A DNA stretch of 64,000 nucleotides from Fusobacteria bacterium ZRK30 (lineage in GTDB: Bacteria; Fusobacteriota; Fusobacteriia; Fusobacteriales; Fusobacteriaceae): positions 248,001 through 312,000 of the forward strand of contig CP102404.1 in assembly GCA_024628785.1 (NCBI GenBank), in the 5' to 3' direction. Below, piece by piece: positions 14,015 through 23,020 of the stretch (the first letter of the stretch is position 1; the number at the start of each line of letters is the position of its first letter). Position numbers and translations under genes: made by a program. Below the pieces are notes generated by a model. It was not told the origin of the DNA and did not search any database. It saw nothing but the letters and a program-made list of their open reading frames with translations.

Positions 14015-14596
14015 TTATTTTAATATCTTTCTGGCTTCTGCCATCCTCTGGCCGGCAGTAAAAATTATTATCAAGATAAATATAGTTATTATGATATTTA
14101 AGTATTGGGGAAATAAGATCATCCCTGAAAAAAATATAAAACCTTCCGTTCTTTCTGCTAAACCAGCCTGATAATAAAAAGATTTTTCACTTATTTTTGT
14201 AGACAGCGTTCCCACCGTTAAAAATATAGTCATACTGATTATGATACTAGATGCAAGGAGAAAAAATAAAAAATTACTTTCTGGATATTTCATGGCTAGG
14301 GCTAACATTATTCCAATCTCCACTATCCTGTCAAAGGTAATATCCATAAGTGCTCCAAAAAGGTTGGATCCCTTTGATCTGGCAATGGTCCCATCTACAG
14401 CATCTAAAAGTCCCGACATCCATAACAGAGTCACTCCTACCAATGAATAACCTAAGTATATAGACAGGGGGACACTAAGCCCCAATACTAGAGCCATAAC
14501 CGTAACTTGATTGGCACTGACCCCTGCCTTTATAAATCCAGCTGCAAAAGATTTAATTATTGGTTGTACATATTTTCTTCCGTGTGTATCTAACAT
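14015..14596 (-). CDS. CDP-alcohol phosphatidyltransferase family protein (YnjF-like)
   Basis: A 193-residue membrane enzyme of the CDP-alcohol phosphotransferase superfamily. The catalytic signature D-G-x2-A-R-x8-G-x3-D-x3-D is complete: DGTIARSKGSNLFGALMDITFD, split here as DGTIAR, then G and two Asp at the right distances. About five or six hydrophobic segments follow the pattern of the family. It is the last gene of the operon encoding the ABC-type binding protein and permeases, exactly as ynjF ends the E. coli ynjABCDEF run. The alcohol acceptor is unknown. Confidence 0.88.
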   Translation of the reverse strand: MLDTHGRKYVQPIIKSFAAGFIKAGVSANQVTVMALVLGLSVPLSIYLGYSLVGVTLLWMSGLLDAVDGTIARSKGSNLFGALMDITFDRIVEIGIMLALAMKYPESNFLFFLLASSIIISMTIFLTVGTLSTKISEKSFYYQAGLAERTEGFIFFSGMILFPQYLNIIITIFILIIIFTAGQRMAEARKILK

Positions 14597-14620
14597 CTTT
14601 CCTCCCTCAATAACTTTCTA

Positions 14621-15373
14621 CTACCTTACCTTTGTAATTTTTTTCAATCCAAACCTTATTCCCAATTCAAACACTAAAATCCCAATAACATTAAATAGGA
14701 TAAATAGGATAGCATATACCGCCCCCACAACCTTATCTCCGCTGCTTAAATATGGAAACATCAAGATTGGCAGAGTAATTATCTCTCCTCCTCCTATTAG
14801 AAGGGTCAGTATATATTCTGACAGAGATATCAATATCGATATTGTTGAACCGATCAATATCCCGGGAAGCAATATGGGCAGGATAATATACCTGTACATC
14901 TGAAATTTCGAGACACCATCAATAAGTGCCGATTCTTCCAGTCTTTTGGGAAATCCTTTAAAACTCCCATAAAGACTTAGAAGTACATAGGGAAAACTAG
15001 GTATTATGTTGACCAGGATCACTCCTAATAAGTTGTCTGTTAATCCATAAATTATCATACTGTAATGGATTCCCAACACAGATGACAGAGATGGGATTAT
15101 TAGGGGGGCAAATAAAATTACCATATAAATTCCTTTAAATCTGCTTTTTTTTCTGAATAAAAATCTAGCTGCAGGTATAGCCAGAAACAGATTGATTACA
15201 GCCACTGTATAGGCAATGGATAAGTTATATCCCATCCCAACCCACGTGGATCTATTTTTTAATACATATTCATATCCATCCATGGAATAATTAGAAGGCA
15301 GTATCTCTCCAAATCTCCATCCGCTAGATACAGAACCTAGAACCAAGGGGATAAACGGGAATAAAACTACCAA
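14621..15373 (-). CDS. ABC transporter permease (second half of YnjC-like permease)
   Basis: 250 residues, six predicted hydrophobic segments. The EAA-type loop that contacts the ATPase is RLEESALIDGVSKFQMYRYIILPILLPG. It follows the other permease gene after 26 bp and precedes the CDP-alcohol transferase. In E. coli, YnjC carries two permease halves in one polypeptide; here they appear to be separate genes. The substrate is unknown, and no ATPase is encoded in the operon. Confidence 0.87.
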   Translation of the reverse strand: MVVLFPFIPLVLGSVSSGWRFGEILPSNYSMDGYEYVLKNRSTWVGMGYNLSIAYTVAVINLFLAIPAARFLFRKKSRFKGIYMVILFAPLIIPSLSSVLGIHYSMIIYGLTDNLLGVILVNIIPSFPYVLLSLYGSFKGFPKRLEESALIDGVSKFQMYRYIILPILLPGILIGSTISILISLSEYILTLLIGGGEIITLPILMFPYLSSGDKVVGAVYAILFILFNVIGILVFELGIRFGLKKITKVR

Positions 15374-15399
15374 TATAAATACCAGTCCTGCTATTATAA

Positions 15400-16275
15400 T
15401 TATTTTTCTAATTCTAATTCCACCCTTTCTCCCAGTGATCTATTTAGTTTATAGATAATTAGTGCCACACCGACTGTTAACAATATGATTATACTATTTA
15501 TGACCATTACCTCTCCCCTGTGAACTATACTATTTCTTGCATATTTTTCATAGGCTAAAACCGGAAGAGTCCTAGGGTACGTTACTCCCAAAAGATATGG
15601 AACTTCAAATGAAGCAAATATATGAGCAAAAACTACAAACAATGAACTCAAATAGATAGGGAAAATTATTGGAAATACTACCTCTTTAAAAAAATGATAT
15701 CTATTTACCCCATACACTTTAGCTACATCCAGCCACTCATTGTTTATCTTTATCATCGTTGAATAAACCATAAGGATCACAAAGGGACTGGCCTTCCACC
15801 CATAGGTTAATATGATTGAATATCCATGACTCTCATTGACCAAAATCGGAAATTCATCCATCTTATGAATACATCCCAATCTATAACATAGAGTAGAGAT
15901 CATACCACTCTGGCCAATCAGGGTCGAGATCATATATCCTCCTAAGAGATAGGGAATATACATAGGTGACAGAATAAACATCTTAATCCCATTTAATTTT
16001 GCCAGATCGACCTCTGTACTGAGAAGGTAGAGTACATATATCCCCAAAAGAGATATTACTCCCACTAAAATTATGGAGCACAGACTTAATTTAGCTGTAT
16101 AAACCAGAGAATTTAAAAATTCTCCCTTATTTATTACTTTTTCCAGCAATTTATAGTTAAATATCTGCTGAAAAGACTTCAATATTCCGCTCCAAAATAA
16201 TACCGACATCACAATGATGCTGGGCAGGATTCCCAGATGTTTCTTAACCCTTTGCCACTTTTTCATACCATTCAT
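15400..16275 (-). CDS. ABC transporter permease (first half of YnjC-like permease)
   Basis: A 291-residue polytopic membrane protein with the permease loop EWLDVAKVYGVNRYHFFKEVVFPIIFP near residue 190 and about six hydrophobic segments. It overlaps the end of the binding-protein gene by 32 bp; the ATG at 16275 has GGGA upstream, and a second ATG three codons later (16266) is also possible. The overlap indicates translational coupling. With the next gene it forms a heterodimeric permease of the YnjC type. Confidence 0.87.
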   Translation of the reverse strand: MNGMKKWQRVKKHLGILPSIIVMSVLFWSGILKSFQQIFNYKLLEKVINKGEFLNSLVYTAKLSLCSIILVGVISLLGIYVLYLLSTEVDLAKLNGIKMFILSPMYIPYLLGGYMISTLIGQSGMISTLCYRLGCIHKMDEFPILVNESHGYSIILTYGWKASPFVILMVYSTMIKINNEWLDVAKVYGVNRYHFFKEVVFPIIFPIYLSSLFVVFAHIFASFEVPYLLGVTYPRTLPVLAYEKYARNSIVHRGEVMVINSIIILLTVGVALIIYKLNRSLGERVELELEK

Positions 16276-17365
16276 CTTTTATCCCTTCTGTTACCTCTGG
16301 AGATAACTCCTCCAATTGAGGTGTAAACAACTCTTCCTTCAATTTTTTGGTAACTGCACCGTCTCCCCAGACTGAAGACTTCATCTTTTCCTCTTGAGGG
16401 GCATTGGAGATCATATAGTTTATAAAAACCAAAGCTGCTTCTGGATTTTGTGTATTTTTAGCTATAGTCAGATAGTGATTGTTTGTAAAACTCCCTACAT
16501 TCATTACATATGGATATGTATCCTTAGGAAACTCCCCTAAAGCCACTTTATTCTCTACAATACTAGGAGTGTAGCTGATGGAAAAATCAACCTCTCCACT
16601 GACAAATAATTCATGGTTTCTTTCTGAAGATTCAGGATATGTTTTTCCTTCCCTCCATAGATAGGGCTTTATTTCATTTAAGTAATCCCATACTGGTCCC
16701 ATCTCATCCACTGTAAAATCATCTCTTCCCAATATATCTACAGCCAATGTCCTTATAAAAGCATTTCCCACAAAATCATTGGGGTTGGAATAGGTAAATC
16801 TTCCCGGATTTTTTATTACCCATGATCGGAGTTCTGCTGCTGTTTTAGGAGGATTCTTTACCTCTGTTATCATTATAAAGTTAGCCTGTCCCAGAGGTGC
16901 TTCCAGTCCATCTACCGGCTCACCAAAATCACTTCTTAAGGCATTTGGGTCTACTCCCTCTATATTTGGTAACTTAGAGTTGATATCTCCCAATAAAATC
17001 CCATTGGTTTTAGCAAATTTAAAATTTTCTCCATTGAGCCAGATAACATCGGTACTTCCATTTATTTTATTGGCTTCTTTCTCGATAACCAGTTTATTCA
17101 GAGGCTGTCTGATATCTGTAACCGGTACCCTCTTTAAAGTTACATTATATTCTTTTTTCAGATTAGGAGCTATAAATTCATCATAATATTTATTGATCTC
17201 CTTACTTCCTCCCCACATTGTTATGGAAACACTCTGTCCATCGGCATTTTTTTCAATCTCTTCCCAGCTCATGTTCAAAACGTCTTTTTTGGATACTTCT
17301 TCCTCTTTCCCACAACCTATCAATAAAAAACTCACTAATATTAATAGAAACATTAATTTTTTCAT
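16244..17365 (-). CDS. ABC transporter substrate-binding lipoprotein (YnjB-like)
   Basis: A 373-residue extracytoplasmic solute-binding protein. The signal peptide ends in a lipobox, LLIGCGKEEE, so the mature protein is a lipoprotein. SVSITMWGGSKEINKYYDEFIAP, LNGENFKFAK and FINYMISNAPQEEKMKSSVWGDGA match the family that includes E. coli YnjB, whose ligand is not established. It is the first gene of the binding protein-permease-permease-CDP-alcohol transferase operon. No ATP-binding subunit is present between these genes, so the ATPase must be shared or encoded elsewhere. Confidence 0.88.
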   Translation of the reverse strand: MKKLMFLLILVSFLLIGCGKEEEVSKKDVLNMSWEEIEKNADGQSVSITMWGGSKEINKYYDEFIAPNLKKEYNVTLKRVPVTDIRQPLNKLVIEKEANKINGSTDVIWLNGENFKFAKTNGILLGDINSKLPNIEGVDPNALRSDFGEPVDGLEAPLGQANFIMITEVKNPPKTAAELRSWVIKNPGRFTYSNPNDFVGNAFIRTLAVDILGRDDFTVDEMGPVWDYLNEIKPYLWREGKTYPESSERNHELFVSGEVDFSISYTPSIVENKVALGEFPKDTYPYVMNVGSFTNNHYLTIAKNTQNPEAALVFINYMISNAPQEEKMKSSVWGDGAVTKKLKEELFTPQLEELSPEVTEGIKDEWYEKVAKG

Positions 17366-17558
17366 TTCTCTTCTCCCCCTTTAAATAATTGTGCTCTTTC
17401 CACTATTATACCATAATTATACCTTCTATTCTGAGTGTTTATTCCCCTTTAAATAAATATTTAGACTGTATCAGTAACATAATATTTATTAATAATTTTT
17501 TTAGATATTTTAATTTCATACCTAATATATCTACGCCTGATTATTAGAGATAAGTTAG

Positions 17559-17586
17559 AAAAAAGCTGTAGAAATATATCTACAGC
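17559..17586 (-). terminator. Terminator of Sec-rhodanese gene
   Basis: On the minus strand GCTGTAGA pairs with TCTACAGC around a 6-nt loop and is followed by six T. It is 29 nt past the stop at 17615, which supports the readthrough gene end rather than the UGA at 17741. Confidence 0.85.
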
Positions 17587-17614
17587 CCAAATATCAAAAG
17601 TAGCTTATTAAATT

Positions 17615-18562
17615 CTATTTTTCCATTGGCATAGTTTTATCACCACTCCATTCATAGATAGAACCTTCATAGTTTTTCACATTTTCAAAGCCCCCGGCTC
17701 TGAGGATCATAGTTGCATAACCCGATCTTATTCCCATAGTTCAGTAAAGTGTAAAATCATCTTTTTTAGAAATTCCCATCTTACCCATTATCTCTTCTAT
17801 TTCTTTTGGTGTCTTTAAAGTCCCATTTTTATTTAATAGATCTGTCCAAACAAGATGCTTCGCTCCTTTTATATGACCACCTCTAGGTTCCCCTGCATTT
17901 TGAGACCCATCAAATTCTTTTTTAGTTCTTACATCAATAACTATTTTTTTATCTAAATTTTCAAAAAGATCATCTTTTGTTATCATAAAACTTTTATCAT
18001 AATCTTTTAAAGTTATACCCGAACTAGGATTTGGTTTAACTGTAATATCATTTGTCATTTCATAGCCAAGTTCTTTCCAATAACTAGATCCTCCATGAAG
18101 GATTTTAACGTTATTCAGTCCTGCTAACCTTAACTGCCAGACTGCACGGCCATCTGCACCAGGACCTTTAAATAGATCTGAGTAAAGTACCACTGTTTTT
18201 TCATTATCTATTCCCAATGAAATAAGTTTTTTAGTTAACTCCTCATTTGATTTTATAGTCCCCCAACCTGGGTCTCCTGGTTTCCCAACTTTTTCTGAAA
18301 AAGCATGGAACCCGATTCCGATTGCTCCCTTTATATGTTCTTTAGCATATATTTTAGGATTATTACAATCTAATAATATTAAATTTTCTGATCCCAACAA
18401 TGGCTTGAGTTCTTGCGGACTGATAAAATAATCTCCTTTTTCATATATCGATAGATCTATTTCTTTTATTTTCTCAGTCGATGTTTTATTACAACTACTA
18501 AACAAAATAAATGTTAACGTACATAAAATAAGCAGTCCAAATTTGATGTAATTTTTCTTCAT
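17615..18562 (-). CDS. Selenocysteine-containing rhodanese (double-domain sulfurtransferase lipoprotein)
   Basis: A 315-residue lipoprotein (lipobox FSSCNK) with two rhodanese domains. The first (about 40-160) has no catalytic Cys (VVLYSDLFKGPGADGRA). The second (about 175-315) reaches FTLY and then an in-frame UGA at 17743-17741 where a rhodanese has its catalytic Cys. The frame continues U-T-M-G-I-R-S-G-Y-A-T-M-I-L-R-A-G-G and ends at TAG 17615, giving an ideal active-site loop (C/U-x-x-G-x-R) and a normal domain length. A terminator lies just beyond. A weak SECIS-like hairpin (AUAA/UUAU, loop GAUCGGG) begins 9 nt after the UGA. It is co-transcribed with the TVP38 gene 12 bp upstream. Confidence 0.9.
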
Positions 18563-18574
18563 TTCTTCCCCCTT

Positions 18575-19279
18575 TTAATTTAGATCAATTATATCTTTTG
18601 CTTCTTTTTTGTCGTTCCAAACTTTTTTAAGTAAAAAGATCAATGTACTTATTGCAAATAACATAAGTAGTCCCACTACTATTGTTTTAGTTGTCCCTGT
18701 TAACATACTTCCAATATACGAATAAACTATCGTTGCTGGAAGTTGTCCTATACCCGTTGCAACAAAAAAGCTGAAAAAACTCATAGAAGTTAATCCGGCA
18801 GCATAACTGACAATATCAAAAGAAATAAATGGTAATAAACGTGCTATTAATATTGTATATTTCCCATATCTATCAAAAAAATCATCTACACTATCTAGTG
18901 CATATCTACCAGTTAATTTTGTTACAACTGCTCTACCATAAAACCTTGCAATAAAGAAACAAAGAGCTGCCCCTGCCATAGAACTTGTCCAAGAAAGAAT
19001 AGCCCCTTTTACCCACCCAAATAAACCCGCGTTTGCAAAAGTTATTATAAAGGCAGGAAGAGGAGCTGCTATAGATTGAAGAATCATCAGTAAAAATGAT
19101 ACAACTGGTGCCCATATTCCAAATCCTAAGATATAACCTCTTGCCAAATCAACATCTACATTTTTAAGGATAAAAACAGCTTGATTGACGTTTATTTTAA
19201 CTGCTGGTATTAATAAATACAGCCCTATTACGACTATCAAAACTCCTATTTTTATACCCTTTTCTTTTCTATACTTCAA
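18575..19279 (-). CDS. TVP38/TMEM64 family membrane protein (YdjX/YdjZ-like)
   Basis: 234 residues of the DedA-like VTT superfamily. The central region (FANAGLFGWVKGAILSWTSSMAGAALCFFIARFYGR, then RLLPFISFDIVSYAAGLTSMSF) carries the conserved re-entrant loop and Arg/Pro residues. The start is TTG at 19279 with GGAGG eight bases upstream. It leads the Sec-rhodanese gene in a two-gene operon. TVP38 proteins pair with rhodaneses in the E. coli ydj-ynj run, and a second TVP38 domain is fused to a rhodanese at 20 kb, so the partnership is functional rather than accidental. The transported substrate is not known. Confidence 0.9.
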   Translation of the reverse strand: MKYRKEKGIKIGVLIVVIGLYLLIPAVKINVNQAVFILKNVDVDLARGYILGFGIWAPVVSFLLMILQSIAAPLPAFIITFANAGLFGWVKGAILSWTSSMAGAALCFFIARFYGRAVVTKLTGRYALDSVDDFFDRYGKYTILIARLLPFISFDIVSYAAGLTSMSFFSFFVATGIGQLPATIVYSYIGSMLTGTTKTIVVGLLMLFAISTLIFLLKKVWNDKKEAKDIIDLN

Positions 19280-19722
19280 TTAATTAACCTCCATATACCA
19301 GTATAATTTTTATTATATATATTAATCATCTTTATTTTATGTAAATTTATATGCCTGTCATCATTTAAGGCTCATTAAATTTAATCTATCTTATCTCCCT
19401 TTTTCTAGAATTATCTGTGGTTTGAAGGTTTTTAATCAATAATTTTAAAAATACTTCAAATTTAATACACCACAAATGTCCCCCTGCTTTATCAAGGAGA
19501 TTATATTTATACATTAAGAATTAAATTTTTATTTTCTTGATTTTTTACAATGATTGTTAGTTGGAACAGAACAGTTCCGAAAGTAATTATTTAGGAATAG
19601 ATAAAATATTAAGGTCAAAATATCTCGTTAATATGTTTATTTATATCCATCATAATTTTAAAATAGGTTGGAAGTTAAAGAGTGAATTAGAATAAATGTT
19701 CATAATATTGAAGCAGTAAAAA
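19280..19722. other. Intergenic region without confident gene
   Basis: Holds the promoter side of the TVP38-rhodanese operon. A 42-codon minus-strand ORF (19386-19514, MYKYNLLDKAGGHLWCIKFE...) lacks a ribosome site and is not called. GGAAC/GTTCC at about 19564-19579 can form a short hairpin. Otherwise AT-rich sequence. Confidence 0.5.
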
Positions 19723-19821
19723 CTACCTAATATATCCTTTTTCAGATTCTAAAAGTTCCATTATAACTTCATCCAGAAGTTTCTCGGCTGCTCAGGCTCA
19801 ATTAGATCTTAATTTAAACAT
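19723..19821 (-). CDS. Candidate 32-residue selenoprotein with U-x-U motif
   Basis: The minus strand has AAAGGAGAGG four bases before an ATG at 19821, then an ORF with two in-frame UGA codons (19800-19798 and 19794-19792) ending at TAG 19723. It begins MFKLRSNUAUAAEKLL and ends LESEKGYIR, an amphipathic helix. A SECIS-like hairpin begins 10 nt after the second UGA. A promoter with TTGATA-17-TATAAG lies just upstream, and the preceding rhodanese-TVP38 gene ends in its own terminator, so this is a separate unit. I do not recognise the family. A U-x-U pair suggests metal or selenium/sulfur binding or dithiol-like redox chemistry. Its position between two rhodanese/TVP38 modules suggests a role with them. 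Confidence 0.7.
19765..19781 (-). promoter_or_regulatory. SECIS-like hairpin in small U-x-U gene
   Basis: In the mRNA, AACUUC pairs perfectly with GAAGUU around the loop UGGAU, beginning 10 nt after the second UGA. The spacing and GG-containing apical loop closely resemble the hairpin in fdhF of the same window. Confidence 0.65.
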
Positions 19822-19852
19822 AATTCCTCTCCTTTAAAAATTTATTTACATA

Positions 19853-19882
19853 ACTTATACCATTTTTTATCTAATTTATCAA
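19853..19882 (-). promoter_or_regulatory. Sigma-70-type promoter of small U-x-U gene
   Basis: On the minus strand TTGATA (19882-19877), a 17-nt spacer and TATAAG (19859-19854) give a near-consensus promoter. The expected transcript start is about 20-25 nt before the ribosome site. Confidence 0.65.
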
Positions 19883-19883
19883 C

Positions 19884-19914
19884 AAATAAAAATTGCCTAC
19901 CAAAGGCAGACAAT
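19884..19914 (-). terminator. Terminator of rhodanese-TVP38 fusion gene
   Basis: ATTGTCTGCC and GGTAGGCAAT form a stem with two wobble pairs around TTT, followed by a T-rich run on the minus strand. It separates the fusion gene from the small U-x-U gene. Confidence 0.7.
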
Positions 19915-19957
19915 TCTTTAACTTTCAATAGATCTAATATCTCAAAATTTTAATTAT

Positions 19958-21487
19958 TTAATTTTGAAGTTCTATCTTTTTTTTGATAATCTTAGTTACC
20001 ACCATAAGTCCCATAAAGATAAGTGATGCTGTGATTGAATATCTTAAAACTATAGCCTTATCCCCAGATGTAAAGGCTCCTGCCAACATAACATATACAG
20101 AGCTTCCCGGAAGGATAAATATTATAGATAATACAACATATTTTATAAATCCAATAGAAGTTAATCCATATACATAATTTTGAATTCCAAAGGGAAAGAT
20201 AGGTATTAATCTCGTTACAGCTAAAATAAACCATCCATCCTTTTTTACCCCTTCATCTATCTTTTTAAAGACAGCTGTGTTTCCAAACTTTCTCTCAATA
20301 GCTTCCCTTGCAACATATCTCGCGATTAAGAAAGATAAGGAAAGTCCTATACCTGCCCCAATAGCCGTATAGACAACTCCCATTACTGGTCCAAAGATTA
20401 TCCCTCCGGCTATTGTTATAGGCAAAGCAGGTGAAATCGTAAGGGTTATAAAGATATACATCAATATATAAGCAAGGGGTCCCCATACTCCCAGCATAGT
20501 AATTACACTTTCTAACTTTTCCCTCTTTGCAAGGTAGCTGAATAAAACTTTAAAAGTATTATCTTTCTCAATCTCAACGTTTCCCCGGGCCAATTCGTAG
20601 GACCACTGGATCCATGAACCATCATAATTTTCAACATCTTTATATCCCAATAACTCTCTCAATACAAAAACCATACGGGCAGACTCTATCCCTGATCGAG
20701 AATATAAAATAATCGGCATATCTTTAGTAATTCCCTGTTCATCAAAAATTCCTTTTATCATTTTATATGATTTAAATGTTTTATCCTTATCTATCGTCAA
20801 ATCCCAGGGAATGTTATATGAACCTGGGATTCTTCCCACAGCAAATATTTTTTCCTCTTGAATGAACCCGTCAGATTCAAGGTAGGTTCTTGTATCTAAT
20901 ATCACTCCACCATCTGCTATGGCAGCTTTAACTTCTTCTAAATTTGCCGACTTAGACAGATCTACCGAATTCGCAAATTCATATACTGCAGGAATCATTG
21001 GTTTTGCCATAGCTCCCTCTACTACCTTTAGTCCAGCTGACTTCCACCCGTCTATCCCACCGTTGATCATGGATATATTCCTATGCCCATACATATCCAA
21101 TATCCACCATAATCTATATGCTTCGCTGCCTTCCCCTCCACCTAATAACAGGATGTGGGTATTAGTCGTAACTCCATATGAACCCAATGTTTCGGCTATC
21201 TTTTGAGGAGCAGCTCTCATACCATCATATTTATACTCCCCTTTATCAGCAGAAAAATCAGATTCCCAAATCTGATAGGACCCTTCTATATGTTCTTTTT
21301 CAAAATCTTCTCGTTTTCTTACATCTAAAATTACTAAATCATTTTCAGACTCTACCATCTTTTTTGCCATCTCTGGATTTACTAAGGTACTGCCTGCATA
21401 TACGGAGTTATCTTTTGAGATTGGAGAACTAGCCATTCCAACCATAAAAATTGCTATAAACATTATAACGGTTAGCAGTTTTTTCAT
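19958..21487 (-). CDS. Rhodanese-rhodanese-TVP38 fusion protein (catalytic Cys missing)
   Basis: 509 residues. Order: signal peptide (MKKLLTVIMFIAIFMVGMASS); rhodanese domain 1 (about 35-160, active loop LLLGGGEGSEA, no Cys); rhodanese domain 2 (about 175-300), where the active loop is LYSRSGIESARM with Ser in place of the catalytic Cys; then a TVP38/VTT membrane domain (about 330-505) with ISPALPITIAGGIIFGPVMG and RLIPIFPFGIQNYVYGLTS. A protein with two Cys-less rhodanese folds joined to a transporter-like domain probably binds or positions a sulfur/selenium carrier rather than catalysing transfer. It follows the Fe-S protein at 21.6-22.7 kb and has its own terminator. Confidence 0.92.
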   Translation of the reverse strand: MKKLLTVIMFIAIFMVGMASSPISKDNSVYAGSTLVNPEMAKKMVESENDLVILDVRKREDFEKEHIEGSYQIWESDFSADKGEYKYDGMRAAPQKIAETLGSYGVTTNTHILLLGGGEGSEAYRLWWILDMYGHRNISMINGGIDGWKSAGLKVVEGAMAKPMIPAVYEFANSVDLSKSANLEEVKAAIADGGVILDTRTYLESDGFIQEEKIFAVGRIPGSYNIPWDLTIDKDKTFKSYKMIKGIFDEQGITKDMPIILYSRSGIESARMVFVLRELLGYKDVENYDGSWIQWSYELARGNVEIEKDNTFKVLFSYLAKREKLESVITMLGVWGPLAYILMYIFITLTISPALPITIAGGIIFGPVMGVVYTAIGAGIGLSLSFLIARYVAREAIERKFGNTAVFKKIDEGVKKDGWFILAVTRLIPIFPFGIQNYVYGLTSIGFIKYVVLSIIFILPGSSVYVMLAGAFTSGDKAIVLRYSITASLIFMGLMVVTKIIKKKIELQN

Positions 21488-21612: not shown

Positions 21613-22749
21613 TTATTTCCTTTTATTCAGTTCTTTTTTAGATTTAAATCTGTTCATCCATTGCACACTTGTCCCTTGAGTTCTTTTAGTTGCAGAATCT
21701 TTAGTATATCTTTCTCCAAATATTAAGTCTAAAATATGTACTGAATCTTTTCCTGCACTTTCCATAGCTCCTCTGCACGCAGCACAATAACTTACTATAT
21801 GGTCTGTGTTATATTCTGCTGCTCTCTTATTTCTAATTGTATGAGTCATTTTAGGGTTGGCTGGCCCTACCATCCCGCCAAACCCGCAGCACCTTGTATC
21901 TTCCCTTGTGTGCAACGGCTCTTCAGTTTCATATTCCATTTGAGCTAGGATCCATCTGATCCCATCTTGAATCTTCTTGTTGTACCTGGTAGGGCATGAG
22001 TCATGAATACCAAATATTACATCTGAATCTTTCCCTATTCCTTTGGCATGTTCAGGTAATCCTAATTCAGGAAGGACCTCCCATAGAGATCTTACCCTTT
22101 GATTGGGACTATTTTTTCTAAAAACTTCATAACATGACTGACATGCTACGATGATCTCCTCTGCACCTAATTCATCCATAGATCTCTGGACTGAGGTATA
22201 TCTTTTCTTAAATTTCTCCTCCTGTCCCAAATCCTTGGTTGGTTTCCCACAGCATTTTAAGATCGAACCTACCTCACCCTCATATTTTTCCTGGAGATAA
22301 TCTAAGATATTTCCCACAGCTTTTGGGTTATATGATGACAGGGAACACCCCGGAAGAAAGACTCTCACAGTCTTTTTATCTCCTAAAGCTTTATTGGAAG
22401 TATTAAAAAAATTAGAATTCCCCAAATATTGGTGAGCTTCAACTACTTTATGACCCTTCATAGGTGATCTCCCATTATTTTTTTCTACCTTCAGCTTCCT
22501 GCTTTCCATAAATATATCCTGTATCTTATAATCTTTTGGACAGGCAATGGTACATTGACTACACATATTACAAGAATATGATAATTTATCTAATATTTTA
22601 TTTTTCTCTATACACCCCTTGAAAATTGATTTTGGATCTTTCCCAAAATCATTTAACATAGCACAATTTTTCATACAGGGTTTAGATTTACACTCTAAAC
22701 ATCCCTCAATTATTTCTTCCATTTTTTCTTTGATCTCTTTAGAAATCAT
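21613..22749 (-). CDS. Fe-S oxidoreductase with two CCG (HdrB-like) domains
   Basis: 378 residues. The N-terminus has a Cys-rich CLECKSKPCMKNC and the ferredoxin cluster CNMCSQCTIACP. Two CCG domains follow: CCGKPTKD with CQSCYEVF, and CCGFGGMVG with CAACRGAM, the signature of HdrB/GlpC/LldE-type subunits that handle thiol-disulfide or heterodisulfide chemistry at an unusual [4Fe-4S] site. Start: an upstream GTG (22758) is inside the ribosome site AAGGTG, so the ATG at 22749 is preferred. It is upstream of the rhodanese-TVP38 fusion on the same strand, 125 bp apart, and could deliver electrons to a persulfide or selenosulfide bound by the rhodaneses. Confidence 0.88.
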   Translation of the reverse strand: MISKEIKEKMEEIIEGCLECKSKPCMKNCAMLNDFGKDPKSIFKGCIEKNKILDKLSYSCNMCSQCTIACPKDYKIQDIFMESRKLKVEKNNGRSPMKGHKVVEAHQYLGNSNFFNTSNKALGDKKTVRVFLPGCSLSSYNPKAVGNILDYLQEKYEGEVGSILKCCGKPTKDLGQEEKFKKRYTSVQRSMDELGAEEIIVACQSCYEVFRKNSPNQRVRSLWEVLPELGLPEHAKGIGKDSDVIFGIHDSCPTRYNKKIQDGIRWILAQMEYETEEPLHTREDTRCCGFGGMVGPANPKMTHTIRNKRAAEYNTDHIVSYCAACRGAMESAGKDSVHILDLIFGERYTKDSATKRTQGTSVQWMNRFKSKKELNKRK

Positions 22750-23020
22750 AATTTTCACCTTCTTTATCCTGATTATAATGTCTTAAATTCCTGACTTTTA
22801 TTTATATTTTTTACCTGTCTGTTTATTCAAAAACATAACACTTTGAATACAAAGTGTCAACTTTTTCATCAGCAACAGTAAATTTTAAATTGCAATTCAG
22901 TTATAGCTTTCATGTGATAATCTTCATAACTTATAGATAAATTTATATAAAGTAAATAAAAGTTATAAAAATTTGGTAGAATAAATTATATCACAATAAT
23001 TATAATTTTTAGGAGGTCTT

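What the first reader, a model, noticed from the sequence alone, without database searches (positions are those of the whole stretch)
19723..19821. Unannotated 32-residue selenoprotein candidate with U-x-U motif
Two in-frame UGA codons two codons apart (N-U-A-U-A) lie in a short ORF with very strong expression signals: TTGATA-17-TATAAG promoter, AAAGGAGAGG ribosome site, and a 6-bp/5-nt SECIS-like hairpin 10 nt after the second UGA, the same geometry as the fdhF SECIS. Ordinary gene finders cannot see it. It sits between rhodanese-TVP38 genes. A tiny protein with two selenols (C-x-C equivalent) would be a new kind of selenium or metal carrier or redox peptide.
Basis: partly seen in the sequence, partly recalled or inferred. 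Interest (0 to 1): 0.9.

Follow-up and report, generated by a model that had tools for sequence, protein, structure and literature searches.

The report
Conserved selenium-operon leader with paired UGAs
A short, unannotated reading frame with two UGA codons and a hairpin is conserved in front of selenium-related gene clusters in one bacterial genus, and looks more like a leader that senses selenocysteine supply than a tiny functional protein, although nothing yet shows that the UGAs are read as selenocysteine.

Summary
The sequence features are real: promoter, ribosome site, a 32-codon frame with UGA-GCC-UGA, and a 6-bp/5-nt hairpin. They are also conserved. The frame is the 5' part of a ~300-nt unit with its own promoter, present 11 times at three loci in four species of the genus. 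Nothing like it was found in the other Fusobacteriota genomes searched, in phages or in plasmids. Every copy whose surroundings could be read lies beside selenium-related genes: the TVP38/selenocysteine-rhodanese operon in this window, and both sides of a "SAO" selenoprotein cluster elsewhere. The host has tRNA-Sec and SelB. Inside the frame the longest invariant blocks are exactly UGA-GCC-UGA and the hairpin. The rest drifts without third-position bias (7 of 23 variable sites, against medians of 67-75% in neighbouring genes), so the peptide itself shows no clear selection. The unit follows an upstream terminator, has no intrinsic terminator of its own, and points toward the next operon. Best reading: a translated leader whose paired Sec codons and SECIS-like hairpin sense Sec-tRNA/SelB supply (about 0.42). 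Rivals: an ordinary 7-codon uORF on a structured leader with UGA as stop (0.30), or a real two-Sec micropeptide (0.20). Sec insertion and regulation are untested.

The parts
19888..19918 (-). intrinsic-terminator-like hairpin that ends the upstream rhodanese-TVP38 gene
   Evidence: 14-pair stem with T tail; it separates the upstream gene from the element
19854..19882 (-). promoter TTGATA-17-TGG-TATAAG (extended -10)
   Evidence: read directly; the same layout is conserved upstream of most of the 11 copies
19826..19835 (-). Shine-Dalgarno AAAGGAGAGG; pairs in the consensus fold with CUCUUU at 19677-19682
   Evidence: consensus fold and pair counts, (one compensatory A-U to G-C pair)
19723..19821 (-). 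short ORF of 32 codons with UGA at codons 8 and 10
   Evidence: frame open in all 11 copies apart from the two UGAs; ATG in 10, GTG in 1
19792..19800 (-). invariant block UGA-GCC-UGA (codons 8-10)
   Evidence: invariant 9-nt run flanked by variable columns, delimited exactly by codon boundaries
19765..19781 (-). SECIS-like hairpin AACUUC-UGGAU-GAAGUU
   Evidence: lies in the longest invariant run of the alignment, AAACTTCTGGATGAAGT, 17 nt; loop 16 nt after the second and 22 nt after the first UGA
19528..19722 (-). conserved non-coding 3' part of the unit: anti-SD/anti-start segment (19677-19702), long A-U hairpin, GGAAC-GUUCC hairpin (19563-19578)
   Evidence: alignment and consensus fold
19374..19520 (-). 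second repeated element that follows the first at loci a and b
18575..19279 (-). TVP38/VTT (DedA-like) membrane protein, first gene of the downstream operon
   Evidence: PF09335
17615..18562 (-). selenocysteine rhodanese; UGA at codon 274 (17743-17741) at the active-site position (LYUTMGIRSG)
   Evidence: one in-frame TGA kept in 5 genomes
19958..21487 (-). upstream rhodanese-TVP38 fusion
   Evidence: PF00581 + PF09335
36609..36701 (-). tRNA-Sec (selC)
   Evidence: Rfam RF01852, 65.7 bits

Best explanation
The element is the start of a leader transcript for selenium-related operons. Ribosomes begin on the short ORF directly after the promoter and meet two UGA codons backed by a SECIS-like hairpin. 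When Sec-tRNA/SelB is plentiful the UGAs are read as Sec and the ribosome passes the hairpin to codon 32. When it is scarce, release or pausing occurs at codon 8. The ribosome position would change the fold of the ~200 nt that follow, including the segment complementary to the SD and start codon, and so the expression of the downstream operon. The paired UGAs would act like the paired Trp codons of trpL, with the peptide itself dispensable. SHOWN: promoter/SD/ORF layout, 11-fold conservation, invariant UGA-GCC-UGA and hairpin, drift of the rest of the peptide, Sec machinery, selenium-gene context. INFERRED: readthrough as Sec, the regulatory switch, and that the downstream operon is co-transcribed.
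For: Eleven copies at three loci in four species. The top invariant blocks in the ORF are exactly UGA-GCC-UGA and the hairpin. Other codons drift with no third-position bias, 7/23 variable columns, against window medians of 0.67-0.75 in VTT and Sec-rhodanese. No indel in ORF columns 31-108, against 10 gap positions in 198 downstream columns. The hairpin has the bSECIS geometry: 5-nt loop with GG, 16 and 22 nt from the UGAs (published constraints in PMC13188914). SelB is in the genus, tRNA-Sec in the window. Context: Sec-rhodanese operon in this window; SaoE, SaoP and UGA-containing SaoL between copies b and c. Layout: upstream terminator, promoter, ORF ~27 nt from the predicted start, no terminator-like site at the element's 3' end. 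In one species the element ends just before the TVP38 gene's ribosome site (G057a).
Against: No expression, ribosome-profiling or selenium data. The fold is no better than shuffles and covariation is slight, 5 pairs. Most hairpins miss the -7.5 kcal/mol limit of the bSECIS model. No attenuator-type terminator was found. The distance to the next gene is 285-543 nt at locus a but 700-1050 nt at c and 900-980 nt at b, long for a cis leader. One relative has the TVP38/Sec-rhodanese pair without the element.
Confidence: 0.42

Rival explanations
1. A structured leader or small RNA with an ordinary 7-codon uORF (MFKLRFN-stop). UGA-8 is a plain stop, and the conserved UGA-GCC-UGA and hairpin are parts of an RNA fold with some other regulatory role, in cis or in trans.
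For: The whole ~300 nt is about equally conserved, coding or not. CUGAN pairs with UUUUAG in the consensus fold, so RNA pairing could explain the second UGA. There is no protein-level selection. An open frame of ~22 codons after UGA is not rare by itself.
Against: Both UGAs and the bSECIS-like geometry are kept in all copies of a Sec-decoding host, next to selenoprotein genes. The ORF is free of indels. The invariant block stops exactly at the two codon borders.
Confidence: 0.3
2. A genuine 32-residue two-Sec micropeptide (U-A-U) acting as a metal, selenium or redox ligand, expressed from three genes; the first reader's reading.
For: Strong promoter and SD, open frame in 11 copies, invariant U-A-U, start conserved, selenium and organometal gene context.
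Against: No third-position bias, radical changes at codons 12, 13, 22, 23 and 26, and a frame-shifted C-terminus. No Cys homologue in 61 family genomes, plasmids or phages. It leaves the conserved 200-nt downstream RNA unexplained.
Confidence: 0.2
3. A non-functional repeated intergenic sequence spread by duplication.
For: Copies share further repeat blocks downstream and are confined to one genus.
Against: Each locus is kept at the orthologous place in three or four species with 17-nt invariant blocks while the surrounding spacer diverges; all well-placed copies are beside selenium-related genes.
Confidence: 0.05

Closest known systems
Leader-peptide attenuators such as trpL and hisL (from general knowledge)
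   Same: Short ORF immediately after a promoter, paired regulatory codons conserved while the rest drifts, complementary RNA segments downstream, relevant operon next
   Different: The codon is UGA/Sec, no intrinsic attenuator was found, the spacer is long at two of three loci, regulation is untested
SECIS-like element in the E. coli selAB leader bound by SelB (Thanbichler and Boeck 2002; cited in PMC8124441, full text not available here)
   Same: A SECIS-like RNA placed as a regulatory leader in a selenium operon
   Different: As recalled, the E. coli element has no translated UGA ORF; here the hairpin follows two in-frame UGAs
Bacterial SECIS (bSECIS) in selenoprotein genes, e.g. grdB of the same genus
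   Same: UGA-to-loop distance, small loop with GG; grdB: loop GGU 18 nt after UGA
   Different: Weaker hairpin; one hairpin would have to serve two UGAs; peptide not under visible selection
SAO (Sec-assisted organometallic) operon
   Same: Two of the three loci bracket an SAO cluster (SaoE, SaoP, SaoL)
   Different: The UGA-x-UGA leader matches no NCBIfam model and is also found outside SAO, at the Sec-rhodanese locus

Membership tests
Bacterial selenoprotein gene (bSECIS-dependent) | In-frame UGA with Sec machinery in the host | tested here: met
Bacterial selenoprotein gene (bSECIS-dependent) | Apical loop 3-9 nt with G in its first two positions, stem 4-16 bp, 16-37 nt after UGA | tested here: met
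   loop UGGAU, 6-bp stem, 16 and 22 nt
Bacterial selenoprotein gene (bSECIS-dependent) | MFE of -7.5 kcal/mol or lower | tested here: inconclusive
   about -4.8 to -8.2 in 48-nt windows; only a few copies reach the limit
Bacterial selenoprotein gene (bSECIS-dependent) | Cys homologues at the Sec position, or protein-level conservation on both sides of UGA | tested here: not met
   no Cys homologue; no third-position bias
Leader-peptide attenuator | Short translated ORF near the transcript start with repeated regulatory codons | tested here: inconclusive
   Layout met by sequence; translation and transcription start not tested
Leader-peptide attenuator | Alternative RNA structures controlling a terminator or downstream ribosome site | tested here: inconclusive
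   Complementary start-region/downstream segments found but no terminator and weak covariation
Leader-peptide attenuator | Downstream operon responds to the amino acid | not testable with these tools
   needs expression data
Known Rfam family | Match to a curated covariance model | tested here: not met
   none on the element

The most novel reading that the evidence does not exclude
A selenocysteine-coded leader peptide: paired UGA(Sec) codons plus a SECIS in a 5' uORF act as a direct sensor of Sec-tRNA/SelB supply that controls selenium and organometal operons, a Sec counterpart of trp attenuation.
Probability: 0.35. Interest if true: 0.85.

Novelty: new variant of a known kind. Interest (0 to 1): 0.6.

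Why it matters
If the UGAs are decoded, this would be a case of a natural leader ORF in which selenocysteine codons serve regulation rather than enzyme chemistry, and would tie a genus-wide family of leaders to the Sec-rhodanese and SAO loci. It also warns that a short ORF with UGA codons and a SECIS-like hairpin is not automatically a small selenoprotein. Even if the UGAs are plain stops, a new conserved RNA family at selenium loci is worth having.

Tried and rejected
Weak DNA hits in other Fusobacteriaceae genera fell mostly in unrelated coding or promoter-like AT-rich sequence. Cys-containing homologues: none. Known RNA families: none on the element; the miRNA-type hits on L063/L066 are well below gathering scores and fall on one long perfect inverted repeat. 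Wider genome and viral scans with a DNA pattern gave only the same genus' UBA2433 contigs plus two unrelated single MAG matches that were not followed up. A covariance model over 98 genomes of the phylum found only the 11 copies plus one marginal hit, E 0.04. Sec-ORF discovery by cross-species six-frame comparison was swamped by antisense shadows and dropped. Pairing of UGA-GCC-UGA with the downstream CCUCAGUUG repeat was considered by eye and rejected because locus a and two species lack the partner.

Full report
CHECK OF THE OBSERVATION. The minus strand of 19821-19723 carries ATG, seven codons to a first TGA, GCC, a second TGA and an open frame to TAG at codon 33. In the 64-kb window a TGA followed by a 6-bp hairpin with bSECIS geometry is not rare (53 of 2120 TGAs), but the full signature (SD, ATG, in-frame TGA-x-TGA, hairpin, 12 open codons) occurs once, and not at all in 20 first-order Markov windows. 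The hairpin on its own does not fold better than shuffles.

CONSERVATION. A DNA search of the own genome found two further copies at 90 and 85% identity. Across the family there are 11 copies in four species of the same genus and none elsewhere; a covariance model over 98 Fusobacteriota genomes agrees. The copies lie at three loci. Locus a is this window's, downstream of the rhodanese-TVP38 fusion and upstream of TVP38 in all four species. Locus b lies downstream of a GGDEF gene and upstream of an ABC transporter operon. Locus c lies downstream of a CobW-type GTPase and upstream of a corrinoid-protein operon. The G057 copy assigned to b sits at a contig end, so its downstream gene cannot be seen.

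SHAPE OF CONSERVATION. The aligned unit is about 300 nt; identity is about 0.86-0.93 over the ORF and about 0.88-0.94 over most of the non-coding part. The longest invariant runs are AAACTTCTGGATGAAGT (17 nt, the hairpin), two 12-nt runs downstream, and three 9-nt runs, one of which is TGAGCCTGA, exactly codons 8-10 between variable columns. The other codons change freely: variable columns by codon position are 6, 10 and 7, pN/pS is 0.62 over all pairs and about 0.9 within loci a and c. In the neighbouring TVP38 and Sec-rhodanese genes, two thirds or more of the variable columns in a typical 26-codon window fall in third positions, and windows as low as 0.31 are 0% and 0.7%. With only the four locus-a orthologues the sORF value is 6 of 14, which is less extreme. 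So I see no clear selection on the peptide, but strong selection on the UGA pair and hairpin. No indel falls in columns 31-108, against 10 gap positions in 198 downstream columns. That is suggestive of translation past the UGAs, not proof, since gap positions are not independent events.

CONTEXT. The genus has SelB and the window holds tRNA-Sec. The second gene downstream of the element is a rhodanese whose active-site residue is UGA-encoded (LYUTMGIRSG), kept in five genomes. The upstream neighbourhood has a gene related to the NCBIfam model diclust_near_Sec, below its cut-off. Loci b and c bracket an SAO cluster: SaoE (529 bits, cut-off 325), SaoP (291, just under 295) and a SaoL with an in-frame UGA (178, cut-off 140; NCUNIMNFF); the SAO system is reviewed in PMC13188914.

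TRANSCRIPTION UNIT. At locus a a terminator-like hairpin closes the upstream gene and, by eye, similar hairpins precede b and c. The promoter is part of the conserved unit. The predicted 5' UTR is about 27 nt. No intrinsic terminator follows the element; in the most divergent species it ends directly before the TVP38 ribosome site. At b and c, 700-1050 nt separate the element from the next long ORF, so co-transcription is inferred, not shown.

STRUCTURE. In the consensus fold the SD and start codon pair with a segment 120 nt downstream (AAGGAG/CUCUUU and AUGUUUA/UAAACAU); 96% of pair cells are standard, 5 pairs show changes on both sides (shuffles: mean 1.7, at least as high in 4 of 500), one of them in the SD helix. 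Single-sequence energies are ordinary. The structure is therefore plausible but weakly supported.

MECHANISM. I rate highest a leader in which the ribosome's fate at the paired UGAs reports Sec-tRNA/SelB supply and changes the fold that follows. This explains the invariant UGA pair and hairpin, the drifting peptide, the long conserved RNA and the selenium context. The switch itself is hypothetical: no terminator or sequestered downstream ribosome site was identified. An ordinary uORF on a structured RNA explains nearly as much and is the main rival. A functional U-A-U micropeptide explains the ORF but not the drift or the RNA.

In the four species with the syntenic locus the element is kept. 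In a fifth, incomplete genome (G059) TVP38 and Sec-rhodanese (91 and 89% identical) lie at a different place with another promoter-like sequence and no element; in G056 the upstream fusion gene exists without the downstream pair or the element. The element is therefore not needed for the Sec-rhodanese pair to be maintained.

LIMITS. The metagenome collection could not be scanned. The statement about E. coli selAB and about trpL rests on general knowledge; the primary paper was not held.

Noticed in passing
window 17615-18562 (-): Selenocysteine rhodanese: the ORF that table 11 ends at 17741 continues through UGA codon 274 at the active site; conserved with one in-frame TGA in five genomes of the genus.
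   Followed up: partly
L063:16522-17598 to L064:832-2984 (G000:C2, about 1406.5-1412 kb): SAO-type cluster with SaoE, SaoP and a UGA-containing SaoL, bracketed by leader copies b and c.
   Followed up: partly
window 19374-19520 (-); L066 (tandem), L063, L069: A second repeated element with a TATAAT-like start and a hairpin that appears to covary by eye; its clear matches all lie next to the first element at loci a and b, and it is tandemly duplicated in G055.
   Followed up: partly
L063:10097-10160, L066:9635-9696: A long near-perfect inverted repeat between locus b and the ABC operon, drawing sub-threshold miRNA-type Rfam hits.
   Followed up: no
window 14015-19279 (-): Gene order TVP38, rhodanese, substrate-binding protein (NF008633 family), two permeases, CDP-alcohol phosphatidyltransferase resembles, from memory, the E. 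coli ydj/ynj cluster.
   Followed up: no
window 21613-22758 (-): Protein related to the NCBIfam model diclust_near_Sec (297 bits, cut-off 530), matching only the second half of that model.
   Followed up: no
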